From Oceanibaculum indicum P24 (GTDB lineage: Bacteria; Pseudomonadota; Alphaproteobacteria; Oceanibaculales; Oceanibaculaceae), in NCBI RefSeq assembly GCF_000299935.1, contig NZ_AMRL01000016.1, positions 1 through 64,000 of the forward strand: 64,000 bases of DNA. The letters are read 5' to 3'. The position numbers were made by a program, and so were the translations under genes. Shown piece by piece: positions 6,445-12,363 of this stretch; position 1 is the first letter of the stretch, and every line of letters starts with the position of its first letter. The notes beneath the pieces were generated by a model. The model saw only the letters and a program-made list of their open reading frames with translations, had not been told where the DNA came from and did no database searches.

Positions 6445-6535
6445 GAAAAGGGGTCAGGCCGATCCGGCCTAACCCCTTGTTCTGATTGGTGGGCGCACAA
6501 GGACTCGAACCTTGGACCCGCTGATTAAGAGTCAG
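6445..6535. repeat. left attachment repeat (attL), with tRNA-Lys 3' fragment
   Basis: First copy of the 91-bp direct repeat. Bases 6487-6535 are a minus-strand copy of the 3' half of tRNA-Lys, from the anticodon stem to CCA; after 6535 the match to tRNA stops. The identity ends exactly at the 5' edge of the anticodon stem, a usual crossover region for tyrosine recombinases. Confidence 0.92.
6450..6480. terminator. bidirectional hairpin terminator inside attL
   Basis: Stem GGGGT/ACCCC and AGGCC/GGCCT with one C-A mismatch and a GATCC loop (6450-6476). On the plus strand it is followed by TTGTTCT and would end the LysE transcript; on the minus strand it is followed by TTTTC and is the ancestral tRNA-Lys terminator. 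Confidence 0.75.
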
Positions 6536-6644
6536 AAGTCCCTGTGTTCCCGTAATCCGTAAAGCCCCCTTTAATATACTGTTTTTTCTTGATTATCTTC
6601 CTGCCTGTCCCGCAGTATGTACGAAGGAATCATATCAGGTTCCA

Positions 6645-6672
6645 GACACCCGAGACACCTGCTGGACACCTG
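6645..6672. promoter_or_regulatory. candidate integrase arm-type sites, left end
   Basis: GACACC occurs three times in 26 bp (6645, 6654, 6665). The 20-mer at 6653-6672 recurs with one mismatch at 12249-12268, just inside the right repeat. Matched short repeats near both ends are what integrase arm-binding sites look like; binding is inferred. Confidence 0.55.
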
Positions 6673-6682
6673 GAGGGATGGC

Positions 6683-7873
6683 GTGAAGGTCAAGCTTACG
6701 AAAACAGTCGTCGACAAGGCGGAGCCGGTTTCGGGCAAGGACGCGGAATACTGGGATAGTGAGCTGCCGCGTTTTGGCCTGCGTGTGAAGCCCTCAGGTC
6801 TGAAGACATTCTTCGTTCGCTATACGACCAAGACAGGCCGCAAGCGGCTGCTCACGGTCGGCGGCTACCCGGCGATGACAGTGGCGGAGGCGCGTGATAA
6901 GGCGCGGCGGCTGTTGCTGGAGGTGGGCAACGGTGCGGACCCGAAGGAAGAACAGGACGCCAAACGGAAGGCCGAGACGGTAGCTGAACTCTGTCGGGAG
7001 TATCTCGAGCGGCATGCACGGCCAAACAAGCGGCCCAAGAGCATCCGAGAGGACGAGCGGAATATCCGCGCGACCGTGATCCCGATGTTGGGGAAGATCA
7101 AGGTTGCCGACGTTACCCGCCGCGATATCGAGGATGTCCTGTTCGCCATCGGCAAGGATCACAAGCCTACGGCTAATAGGGTCCGCTCACTGCTTTCGAA
7201 GATGTTCAATCTTGCCATCGCGTGGGGCATGCGAGGCGACAACCCGGTGCGCGGAGTGTCGCGGTTTGCCGAGCAGGGCAAGGCGAACTACCTGCCGCCG
7301 GAACAGGCGTCACGCCTGCTTAATGCCGCCCTTGAGCACCCCAACGAGAGAGCGGGGCGGGCCATCGGACTGCTCACGACGACCGGTGCGAGGAAAGGCG
7401 AGGTGCTTAACGCGACGTGGGATCAGTTCGATCTCGAGAAGGGTATCTGGACCAAGCCAGCCAGCACCACGAAGCAGAAGAAGATGCACCGCGTCCCGTT
7501 GAACGAGCACGCGATCACCATCCTTGACCGGATGCGGCAGGACGCCACCGGGGATGAGAAGTTCCTGTTTCCGGGTAATGTGCCGGGCCAGCCGATTACC
7601 GATATCAAGAAGTTCTGGCAGGGTTTGTGTCGCAGCCTTGGGCTGGAGGGCATCCGCATCCACGACCTGCGGCACACATACGCCTCGATCCTGATATCGC
7701 AGGGTGAGACGCTGGAAATGATCGGGCAGCTTCTCGGCCATAGTCAGCTCGTGACCACGAGCCGCTATGCGCACCTGACCGAAGTGAAGACGCGGGAATC
7801 GGCCAACAGCTTCTCTGCGGCGCTGTCCAAGGCGGCAGAATCATCGAACATCATCCCGTTGAGGCGGGCATAG
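6683..7873 (+). CDS. tyrosine-type site-specific integrase
   Basis: 396 residues from GTG 6683, chosen because GGAGGG at 6672-6677 sits five bases upstream. The N-terminal part (GFxxW-type arm-binding domain, DUF4102-like: SELPRFGLRVKPSG, then KTFFVRY and GGYPAMTVAEAR) resembles P4-type integrases. The catalytic set is visible: Arg236 in TGARKGEV, His327 and Arg330 in HDLRHTY, His353 in LLGHSQ and Tyr362 in SRYAHL, so the enzyme looks intact. It would recombine the 91-bp att repeats. It lies next to the displaced tRNA fragment, not next to the intact tRNA. Confidence 0.96.
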   Translation: MKVKLTKTVVDKAEPVSGKDAEYWDSELPRFGLRVKPSGLKTFFVRYTTKTGRKRLLTVGGYPAMTVAEARDKARRLLLEVGNGADPKEEQDAKRKAETVAELCREYLERHARPNKRPKSIREDERNIRATVIPMLGKIKVADVTRRDIEDVLFAIGKDHKPTANRVRSLLSKMFNLAIAWGMRGDNPVRGVSRFAEQGKANYLPPEQASRLLNAALEHPNERAGRAIGLLTTTGARKGEVLNATWDQFDLEKGIWTKPASTTKQKKMHRVPLNEHAITILDRMRQDATGDEKFLFPGNVPGQPITDIKKFWQGLCRSLGLEGIRIHDLRHTYASILISQGETLEMIGQLLGHSQLVTTSRYAHLTEVKTRESANSFSAALSKAAESSNIIPLRRA

Positions 7874-7947
7874 GACAGGGCTTCATGGGGCTCGTTTCGG
7901 CGCTTTACCTCTCTTGAAAATATCGCCGTTTGCGCCTCGTGCGTCAC

Positions 7948-7977
7948 AGCCGCCTGCCTCCGTGTGGGCGGCTTTTT
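7948..7977 (+). terminator. rho-independent terminator after the integrase gene
   Basis: AGCCGCC (7948-7954) pairs with GGCGGCT (7967-7973), followed by TTTTT. It lies 75 bp after the integrase stop and ahead of the alpA-like gene, separating the two transcripts. Confidence 0.8.
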
Positions 7978-8024
7978 CGTGTCCGCGTGGCCGAACGGCT
8001 CCCACTCGCTCAAGGAGCCGAAAC

Positions 8025-8243
8025 ATGATCCTGAATATCCCGACCTACCTGAAGACCGACCAAGTCGCCGCAATCCTCGGTGTGTCTGTTCGGACGCTGG
8101 AGAACTGGCGTTCGACCGGCGGCGGGCCGCGCTTCATGCGTGTAGGCAAGCGGGCTGTCCGCTACCGCCCGGAGGACGTACAGGCCTTCGTGGAGGGGAT
8201 GACCTTCGCCAACACGGGCGAGGCACAGGCGGCAGCGGCCTGA
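8025..8243 (+). CDS. AlpA/excisionase-like helix-turn-helix protein
   Basis: 72 residues with the MerR-like excisionase fold: YLKTDQVAAILGVSVRTLENWRSTG is the helix-turn-helix and GGGPRFMRVGKRAVRYRPEDVQAF is the wing and second helix. ATG 8025 has AAGGAG at 8012-8017 as ribosome site. In P4-like elements such proteins bend DNA at att sites and switch on excision or integrase expression. Its position just after the integrase gene fits that role. The C-terminal alanine-rich tail is of unknown use. Confidence 0.85.
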   Translation: MILNIPTYLKTDQVAAILGVSVRTLENWRSTGGGPRFMRVGKRAVRYRPEDVQAFVEGMTFANTGEAQAAAA

Positions 8244-10917: not shown

Positions 10918-11069
10918 TGGCTATCCTCATCGAACTATCCATTTGGTCGTGTGGCGGAAGCAGTCTTGGCTCTACGCCCTCGTTCTCTTCATGTCTCCTC
11001 GATTGCCCCGGCTGAGATTAGCTTAGCACCTTGTCCAGATTTCCGGGGCTACCTGATTACAAGTTCATC

Positions 11070-11420
11070 ATGCGCAGGGATAAGATTGAGGCGCAGGCAA
11101 GCCAAAGACGGACCACACTGGCCCACACGATCCGCGTCGTGACCATCGACGGCCAGCCGTGGTTCGTGGCGGCTGACGTCGCTGCTGTTCTGGACTTCAG
11201 CACCACCGCTGGCGCTGGTTGGTACGCTCGACACCTCAAGGACAGCGAGCGGAATACCATCATCATTCGTGATGGTAATCGTGGGAACCCGCTCAAGACC
11301 ATCATCAACGAGGCGGGTCTCTACAGGCTCATCATGCGCAGCGACGAACCGGAAGCGCGGGTGTTTCAGAACGGAGTGACGCGATTGCGACGAGAACAAA
11401 AAAAGAACTTTTCACACTAA
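11070..11420 (+). CDS. truncated BRO-N domain protein (phage antirepressor-like)
   Basis: About 116 residues from ATG 11070; an upstream TTG at 11031 would add 13. PWFVAADVAAVLDF and later KTIINEAGLYRLIMRSDEPEARVFQ are the BRO-N signature of phage antirepressors and baculovirus repeated ORFs. The domain normally continues with a W-V-x-x-x-V-L-P-x-I-R helix and a C-terminal DNA-binding or KilA-C part; here it degenerates after VFQN and stops, after a run of seven A. It is probably a remnant or a minimal regulator. It is divergent from the KAP gene with about 150 bp between them. Confidence 0.65.
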   Translation: MRRDKIEAQASQRRTTLAHTIRVVTIDGQPWFVAADVAAVLDFSTTAGAGWYARHLKDSERNTIIIRDGNRGNPLKTIINEAGLYRLIMRSDEPEARVFQNGVTRLRREQKKNFSH

Positions 11421-11471
11421 GAAACTTTTGCTAATGTGCGCTTAGCTTTCTATGCCGCTCCGGCGGGGCCG

Positions 11472-11618
11472 GGACAGTGGCTTTAAAGTGAGGAGCGTCA
11501 ACCCGCTCCGGGTGGTTCTGGTTGAGAACTGCTTAAGGGCAAGTGTGAAGAGACGGACGCGCTCAGACCGCGCTGAAACCTCACTCTTGTCCGGCTGTTC
11601 TTCCCGACGACGGTCGGG
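11472..11618. other. candidate structured RNA or DNA element
   Basis: GGACA (11472-11476) can pair with TGTCC (11588-11592), and AGTGAGG (11487-11493) with CCTCACT (11579-11585), enclosing smaller hairpins such as GAGCG/CGCTC. Directly after is a strong hairpin CCCGAC/GTCGGG (11603-11618). The strand cannot be decided and there is no clear promoter. Confidence 0.3.
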
Positions 11619-12248
11619 CGGGGCTAGCGCCAGCCAGGGCGCGATACAAATGCACGGGTTTTAATGACCTGCAGGCCTGTGGGCGAACCTTGGGCAACGC
11701 TCATGATTCGTATCACTGTTGAGGTCCGAGTAGATGTTGCCGCCGTCCTCGGATGGCTGTCCATTATCTGCTATCTGGCCTAAGGCGTGTGGGGCCGATC
11801 CGTCGGCCTCCCATGTCCTCTATCCCGTTCAAGCGGTGACATAGCCAAGGCAGGCCGTTGTCGGAATTTTCGACCGGAATTTTTCTGCGACCACCCATCG
11901 CGGCTGCGGCGTGGCAACTTCCCCCGTAGTCGGGGTACGGGGGGGGGGTCTGTCGGGCGCTAGGAGCGCCGCTGGGCAGCCCTTCATGATTGCCCTTCTC
12001 TCGGGTCGGGCCGCCGCGCTGGGCGGCTCCCACGGCCTCAAGGGGCGCTTCTCGGTGGCGTTCTCACTCGCCTCTGAGCATGTCCCGCAACAGGCCACGA
12101 CAGAAGACCGTGGCCATCGGCTTGGTCCTTTGGTCCTGCCTCGTCAGGTCGAGGCCACAGGCGTCACGCAAGCGGCAGGGGCAGTCCTTCCAGACTGGAA
12201 GCCACCTCGGCAACGTCGGACACTCAGCCCGAAAGCGTGCTTTGCGTC

Positions 12249-12268
12249 AGACACCTGCTGGCCACCTG
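12249..12268. promoter_or_regulatory. candidate integrase arm-type site, right end
   Basis: This 20-mer matches 6653-6672 at 19 of 20 positions and has the same orientation. It ends four bases before the right 91-bp repeat. Confidence 0.55.
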
Positions 12269-12272
12269 AATC

Positions 12273-12363
12273 GAAAAGGGGTCAGACCGATCCGGCCTAA
12301 CCCCTTGTTCTGATTGGTGGGCGCACAAGGACTCGAACCTTGGACCCGCTGATTAAGAGTCAG
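12273..12363. repeat. right attachment repeat (attR)
   Basis: Second copy of the 91-bp direct repeat, part of the intact tRNA-Lys gene and its terminator. It carries the same terminator hairpin as attL; on the minus strand that hairpin is followed by TTTTC and ends the tRNA transcript. Confidence 0.92.

What the first reader, a model, noticed from the sequence alone, without database searches (positions are those of the whole stretch)
6445..12363. Compact integrative element in tRNA-Lys(CTT) with a KAP NTPase as its only large cargo
The 91-bp direct repeats with one mismatch, offset exactly 5828 bp, are direct evidence of site-specific insertion. The contents (integrase, AlpA-like protein, KAP NTPase, BRO-N remnant, structured DNA) do not match a phage, a conjugative element or a standard P4-like satellite. 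It is a candidate minimal defence-carrying element.
Basis: partly seen in the sequence, partly recalled or inferred. Interest (0 to 1): 0.72.

Follow-up and report, generated by a model that had tools for sequence, protein, structure and literature searches.

The report
tRNA-inserted element carrying orphan DISARM KAP
A small 5.8-kb DNA element has inserted itself into a tRNA-Lys gene of an alphaproteobacterium, and its one big passenger gene is a KAP-family ATPase that came out of a large anti-phage gene cluster (DISARM), leaving scraps of its two former neighbours on either side.

Summary
Direct repeats of 91 bp (90/91) lie 5,828 bp apart. They are the 3' part of tRNA-Lys(CTT), from the anticodon stem onward, plus its terminator. 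The intact tRNA is at 12315-12390(-), and a congener (G001) has the same locus empty. The element holds a P4-type tyrosine integrase, an AlpA-like excisionase, matching 20-nt arm-type repeats at both ends, a Bro-N fragment and one large gene, a 713-aa KAP NTPase.

Its closest relatives mostly sit inside class-1 DISARM operons, between drmMI and drmA (13 loci). In the window it is still bordered by a 25-codon scrap of the drmMI 3' end (one internal stop, ATGA overlap kept) and about 45 bp of the start of the downstream HATPase gene. The host genome has no detectable DrmA or DrmMI. The KAP tree mixes solo and DISARM-embedded copies (at least 5 switches), and six other solo copies lie in genomes without detectable DrmA. 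The ORF shows strong purifying constraint (dN/dS about 0.1).

Best reading: an integrative element carrying a DISARM-derived KAP that works alone as an AAA+/STAND-like (PifA- or RdrA-like) anti-phage ATPase. Origin and insertion are well supported. The solo defence function is inferred.

The parts
6445..6535 (.). left direct repeat (att site): displaced 3' part of tRNA-Lys(CTT) plus its terminator
6653..6672 (+). putative integrase arm-type site, AGACACCTGCTGGACACCTG (a further ACACC-type repeat just upstream)
   Evidence: matches 12249-12268 at 19/20; best of 40 shuffles 15/20
6683..7873 (+). tyrosine integrase with P4-type Arm-DNA-bind_3 domain, likely GTG start (ORF open from 6617); catalytic R...HxxR...H...Y present
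8025..8243 (+). AlpA/excisionase-type HTH protein, 72 aa
   Evidence: HTH_17 2.2e-12; PHROG 66 excisionase and transcriptional regulator 1.2e-10; TIGR01764 excise, below its cut-off
8265..8340 (.). large hairpin (AGAGTCACTGA / TCAGTGACTCT arms) downstream of alpA; function unknown
8731..8775 (-). scrap of the start of the DISARM HATPase gene (GGAG...TACA..ATGACG.TCGACCT)
   Evidence: alignment z 3.8-6.6 to L065, L045, L052, L041, L042; none to DISARM loci that lack the HATPase there
8776..10917 (-). KAP-family P-loop NTPase, 713 aa, intact, of the DISARM-associated clade
10914..10988 (-). scrap of the drmMI 3' end: RERGRRAKTASATRPNG*FDEDSQ*, one internal stop, TGA overlapping the KAP ATG
   Evidence: compare L065 SKRGRRPKAAPSATLAGLFDEDGQ* and L046 SSKRGRRAKGAPAAVTGGLFDGEAE*; alignment z 6.3 to L065
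11031..11420 (+). Bro-N (anti-repressor N-terminal) domain ORF, 129 aa (116 aa from ATG 11070), no C-terminal domain
12249..12268 (+). putative integrase arm-type site, right end
12273..12363 (.). right direct repeat (att site); its 12315-12363 part is the 3' part of the intact tRNA
12315..12390 (-). tRNA-Lys(CTT), the target, restored by the element

Best explanation
This is a 5.8-kb integrative element. Its tyrosine integrase recombines an attP that carries a copy of the tRNA-Lys 3' end with the chromosomal tRNA-Lys(CTT), so the tRNA is kept functional. An AlpA-like excisionase probably directs excision. Its one large cargo is a KAP NTPase that descends from the accessory slot of a class-1 DISARM operon and has become an orphan. 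The most likely function is a stand-alone anti-phage ATPase: an AAA+/STAND-like protein that senses an infection cue, oligomerises with ATP and stops the infection, probably by abortive infection as PifA is thought to do, without DrmA, DrmB or a methylase. Shown by sequence: the insertion, the empty site, the DISARM origin with two flanking scraps, no detectable DrmA or DrmMI in this genome, and constraint on the KAP ORF. Inferred: current mobility, excision, the solo defence function and its abortive nature.
For: Insertion and empty site. Arm-type repeats at both ends. Relatives inside class-1 DISARM (DrmMII/Dcm, Vsr, DrmD, DrmMI, KAP, HATPase, DrmA, DrmB, DrmC). Scraps on both sides, absent from the flanks of the other solo copies. 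No DrmA in the own genome, with a positive control, nor in six other solo-KAP genomes; no DrmMI in the own genome. The tree places the window KAP next to a DISARM KAP (97/92), and solo and DISARM copies are mixed with at least 5 forced changes. Pairwise dN/dS for window vs L041/L042/L065 is 0.09-0.14, against 0.10-0.11 among those DISARM copies; Walker and WWFSGQEN motifs intact. Fold nearest to RdrA of RADAR, then Cdc6/ORC. Full-length PADLOC PifA match, 6e-112. Parallel int-alpA-KAP element: L055.
Against: No experiment. Pairwise dN/dS cannot date the separation from DISARM, so part of the constraint may predate it. The KAP has only 24% identity to F PifA. The structural matches are weak over the whole length (TM about 0.3). 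There is no sigma-70-type promoter match in front of the KAP. Excision has not been observed.
Confidence: 0.62

Rival explanations
1. The element is a relic. It once carried a whole DISARM operon, most was deleted, and the KAP is a leftover with no present function.
For: drmMI and HATPase scraps border the gene; about 830 bp of non-coding DNA and a truncated Bro-N lie on the right; element GC is 0.585 against 0.649 for the whole window.
Against: The 713-codon ORF is intact with all motifs, while the adjacent drmMI scrap already has a stop. dN/dS is as low as in DISARM-embedded copies. No other DISARM remnant is convincingly detectable in the element. Solo intact copies recur elsewhere.
Confidence: 0.2
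2. The KAP is an autonomous module that moves in both directions between solo elements and the DISARM drmMI-drmA slot; DISARM is only one of its docking sites. (Compatible with the best explanation; it differs on history.)
For: Labels intermixed on the tree, at least 5 forced changes. DISARM-type operons without KAP exist: six DrmMI-bearing genomes show none in 1.5-kb flanks, and the Microvirga operon has another ATP-binding gene and an O-methyltransferase in the slot.
Against: For the window copy the direction is out of DISARM (scraps). Direction at the other forks is not resolved, and the sample is small and biased by the pattern scan.
Confidence: 0.35
3. A free-standing PifA/KAP defence gene that never belonged to DISARM, as implied by the first reader.
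For: PADLOC labels it PifA; PifA acts from plasmid F, outside DISARM (PMC8594841).
Against: Nested among DISARM KAPs, with DISARM gene scraps at both borders.
Confidence: 0.03
4. The KAP serves the element against competing mobile DNA or helps its maintenance, rather than host phage defence.
For: It rides in a mobile element; DISARM has been reported to act against plasmid conjugation as well (PMC9142583).
Against: No replication or partition gene and no relaxase among the identified genes; nothing points specifically to this role.
Confidence: 0.1

Closest known systems
Class-1 DISARM with a KAP gene in the drmMI-drmA slot (e.g. Caldimonas manganoxidans L041, Acidovorax facilis L042, viral contig L065)
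   Same: Same KAP clade (76-78% identity), nearly the same length (709-713 aa); the drmMI stop / KAP start overlap is preserved
   Different: Here drmD, drmMI, drmA, drmB, drmC, the methylases and the HATPase gene are gone; only scraps remain, and the gene rides a tRNA-Lys element
PifA of plasmid F (T7 exclusion)
   Same: KAP-family NTPase, full-length match to the PADLOC PifA model, carried by mobile DNA, no clear transmembrane helix in either by hydropathy
   Different: 24% identity; 373 bits against 963 for PifA itself; no pifC neighbour; separate, distant branch
L055, Alphaproteobacteria MAG nDJH14bin10
   Same: int (43%), alpA (40%) and KAP (57%), alpA and KAP tail-to-tail
   Different: Extra genes between alpA and int, no tRNA or direct repeats found in the stretch held
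P4-like satellites and islands
   Same: P4-type integrase and AlpA-type regulator, tRNA target
   Different: No primase, psu, delta or sid genes and no cos or capsid functions recognised
RADAR RdrA, Tmn, QatA (KAP/AAA+-related defence ATPases)
   Same: Related P-loop ATPase domain; RdrA is the best structural match
   Different: Low whole-length similarity; QatA cut-off not reached; no transmembrane helices like Tmn; no partner genes

Membership tests
tRNA-targeting integrative element (tyrosine recombinase) | direct repeats made of the tRNA 3' end, tRNA restored | tested here: met
tRNA-targeting integrative element (tyrosine recombinase) | empty site in a related genome | tested here: met
   G001
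tRNA-targeting integrative element (tyrosine recombinase) | intact integrase with catalytic residues and arm sites | tested here: met
tRNA-targeting integrative element (tyrosine recombinase) | excision to a circle | not testable with these tools
   needs reads or PCR
DISARM system | DrmA, DrmB, DrmC and a methyltransferase present | tested here: not met
   No DrmA in the genome with a positive control, no DrmMI; no drm genes among the element's ORFs. DrmB and DrmC were not searched genome-wide
DISARM-associated KAP clade | groups with KAPs encoded between drmMI and drmA | tested here: met
   sister of L041, 97/92; gene scraps
KAP P-loop NTPase family | Pfam KAP_NTPase above cut-off, Walker A and B intact | tested here: met
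   198.7 bits vs 20; GPWGSGKST and IIDDIDRL conserved
Pif system (PifA) | close relation to F PifA and a pifC neighbour | tested here: not met
   24% identity, no pifC in the element; PADLOC model match 373 bits vs 963 for PifA
Pif system (PifA) | phage exclusion activity | not testable with these tools
   needs plating assays
P4-like satellite | integrase and AlpA | tested here: met
P4-like satellite | alpha primase/helicase and psu/sid/delta genes | tested here: not met
   no such ORF in 6445-12363
Qat system (QatA) | NCBIfam NF041923 above its cut-off | tested here: not met
   59.4 bits vs 600
Tmn | two transmembrane helices in a KAP NTPase | tested here: not met
   highest 19-residue hydropathy 1.52, no clear TM segment; definition from PMC11846954

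The most novel reading that the evidence does not exclude
A KAP NTPase clade shuttles repeatedly between an accessory slot of class-1 DISARM and solo life in integrative elements and defence islands, working as an independent anti-phage module in both settings; this window holds a transitional form that still carries the broken ends of its former operon.
Probability: 0.4. Interest if true: 0.68.

Novelty: new variant of a known kind. Interest (0 to 1): 0.52.

Why it matters
DISARM is described through DrmA, DrmB, DrmC and its methylases, and its auxiliary genes are little studied; no paper found in the held library discusses a KAP gene in DISARM (the original DISARM paper is not held). A mobile element in which that auxiliary gene stands alone, bordered by broken ends of its former neighbours, is direct evidence that parts of multi-gene defence systems can break free. 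It also supplies a ready single-gene test of whether the DISARM KAP is an autonomous defence. Annotation with the PADLOC model would call it PifA and hide this origin.

Tried and rejected
Searched for more of the element in phages, plasmids and viral contigs. No phage record encodes the KAP. The integrase has only 25-28% relatives in viral contigs and 39-48% relatives in the class; two of those lie beside tRNA-Lys (L075, L077). The non-coding parts have no meaningful homologue. Looked for more DISARM remnants in the non-coding parts: nothing beyond the two border scraps was convincing; weak tblastx hits near E 1e-3 were scattered and inconsistent. Rfam found only the tRNA, its displaced copy and the tmRNA. 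Sequence search of solved structures gave nothing. The iteron-like CTTATAG repeats and large hairpins at 8265-8600 were noted, but no replication gene goes with them, so an origin is not claimed. A first DrmA search of the own genome without a control was repeated with a positive control. The original DISARM paper (PMC5739279) is not held.
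Full report
OBSERVATION. The two 91-bp direct repeats are real: 6445-6535 and 12273-12363, one mismatch, offset 5828. The only intact tRNA there is tRNA-Lys(CTT) at 12315-12390 on the minus strand. The repeats run from tRNA nucleotide 28, in the anticodon stem, through the 3' end and 42 bp beyond, which includes the terminator hairpin. The left copy is the displaced 3' part (Rfam 29.3 bits against 74.4 for the intact gene). This is the usual signature of a tyrosine-recombinase element that recombines near the anticodon loop and supplies a replacement tRNA 3' end (established knowledge). A congener, G001, has the locus empty: window 6421-6535 and window 12273-14940 align contiguously at one tRNA-Lys in L030, and neither int nor KAP is there. 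Further left, G001 and the window differ (EamA/LysE genes in the window, a thiolase-like gene and a small partner gene in G001), so the region is variable in the genus.

ANATOMY. The integrase has the Arm-DNA-bind_3 domain found in P4-type integrases, the central domain and the catalytic domain. Aligned with its L055 relative it keeps the catalytic R, HxxR, H and Y. A 20-nt sequence containing ACACCTG repeats occurs just inside each end (6653-6672 and 12249-12268, 19/20 identical; best of 40 shuffles of the same ends 15/20) and probably is the integrase arm-type site. An AlpA/excisionase-type protein follows. The KAP gene lies on the other strand, tail-to-tail with alpA. On its far side is a short Bro-N ORF, then about 830 bp without a convincing gene, then the right repeat. 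The non-coding stretches that were folded (8244-8480, 8480-8720, 11420-11670) are more stable than shuffles (z -2.3 to -2.9), but have no homologues, so their role is left open.

WHAT THE KAP IS. A scan of 84,980 species genomes found twenty relatives, eighteen of them at 52-78% identity, mostly in beta- and gammaproteobacteria, with single alphaproteobacterial, magnetococcal, planctomycete and chloroflexi members. In thirteen loci (L041-L047, L049, L051, L052, L057, L058 and the viral contig L065) the gene sits inside a DISARM operon. In L042 PADLOC names the neighbours DrmMII-type cytosine methylase, DrmD, DrmMI, [KAP], a HATPase protein (REase_II model), DrmA, DrmB and DrmC; Vsr was identified in L041 and matched in L042. 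The KAP start overlaps or abuts the drmMI stop in these operons. This composition fits the published description of DISARM, which mentions auxiliary genes without naming a KAP in the passages read (PMC9142583); no held paper was found that mentions KAP in DISARM.

SCRAPS OF THE OLD NEIGHBOURS. Immediately upstream of the window KAP the minus strand reads RERGRRAKTASATRPNG*FDEDSQ*, with the TGA overlapping the KAP ATG. The drmMI ends of L065 (SKRGRRPKAAPSATLAGLFDEDGQ*) and L046 (SSKRGRRAKGAPAAVTGGLFDGEAE*) correspond to it without the internal stop. Immediately downstream, about 45 nt match the start of the HATPase gene in DISARM loci that have this gene next to KAP (z 6.6 L065, 6.3 L045, 6.1 L052, 3.9 L041, 3.8 L042) and not in loci that lack it there, such as L044, L049 and L051. 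None of the other solo KAP loci shows comparable matches on either side (highest z 3.2 among many comparisons). The window gene therefore came out of a DISARM operon of the drmMI-KAP-HATPase type.

SOLO LIFE. No DrmA is found in the window's own genome (98% complete) or in the six other genomes with a non-DISARM KAP, while the positive control finds it; no DrmMI is found in the own genome either. Some of these genomes are incomplete MAGs. The solo contexts differ: near transposase genes and beside putative GTPase genes (L048), near a zeta-toxin-like gene (L050), 0.9 kb downstream of a tRNA-Met (L053), beside a helicase-like gene cluster (L054), an int-alpA element (L055), and between apparent spoT and recG genes (L056); these neighbour names are my reading of the ORFs except for L055 and the tRNA. 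On the tree the window copy is sister to L041 from a DISARM operon (97/92), and the solo label needs six changes, five forced by well-supported branches. Pairwise dN/dS is 0.09-0.14 for the window copy against its DISARM relatives and 0.10-0.11 among those relatives. A three-point split of the values (window, L041, L042) gives about 0.15 for the window branch and 0.13 for L041; synonymous sites are near saturation, so these are rough. The gene has stayed intact while the drmMI scrap beside it has a stop. This argues for function, although the date of separation is unknown.

MECHANISM. The predicted model (mean pLDDT 82.9, pTM 0.67) is an AAA+/STAND-like ATPase followed by a helical C-terminal half. 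The best structural matches are RdrA of RADAR, then Cdc6/ORC proteins; whole-length TM is only about 0.3, so this speaks for the ATPase domain. Among proteins with a known role, PifA of plasmid F gives the best full-length profile match (24% identity). PifA is thought to sense T7 proteins and cause membrane depolarisation and death (PMC8594841). The most likely working model is a single-protein, ATP-dependent infection sensor and effector carried by an integrative element. Steps shown: insertion, origin, constraint. Steps inferred: excision, oligomerisation, trigger, abortive outcome.

MEMBERSHIP AND NOVELTY. It is not a DISARM system (core gene DrmA not found), not a Pif system by close relation, not a P4 satellite (no primase or capsid-control genes), not Qat or Tmn. 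It is an ordinary kind of integrative element with an unusual cargo: an orphan DISARM KAP with remains of its operon. I rate it a new variant of a known kind.

Noticed in passing
L041, L042, L045, L052, L065 and other KAP loci (drmMI-drmA interval): The interval between drmMI and drmA in class-1 DISARM is a variable slot: KAP plus HATPase, KAP alone, an ATP-binding gene plus an O-methyltransferase (Microvirga, L104), or nothing (L098, L099).
   Followed up: partly
L055:9141-15935: A second alphaproteobacterial int-alpA-KAP arrangement, with additional genes between alpA and the integrase.
   Followed up: partly
L053:7878-10398: A 78%-identical solo KAP starts 0.9 kb downstream of tRNA-Met in a Magnetococcales MAG; the reading frame stops early and the contig ends just after, so flanking repeats cannot be checked.
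   Followed up: no
window 4321-6420: EamA and LysE transporter genes left of the element have no counterpart at this place in the congener G001, which has a thiolase-like gene and a small partner gene instead; a second variable segment next to the tRNA.
   Followed up: no
window 8265-8600: Large hairpin followed by an AT-rich stretch with three CCTTATAG-type repeats and palindromes, between alpA and KAP; no replication gene in the element.
   Followed up: partly
window 11058-11097 and 11322-11361: The Bro-N ORF contains a 40-nt internal repeat (73%): its first codons resemble its own end, as if it were the fusion of two decayed Bro-N copies.
   Followed up: no
L071, L075, L077: Related integrases (about 41-43% identity) lie beside tRNA-Leu(TAA), tRNA-Lys(CTT) and tRNA-Lys(TTT) genes, so tRNA-Lys use recurs in this integrase group.
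   Followed up: no
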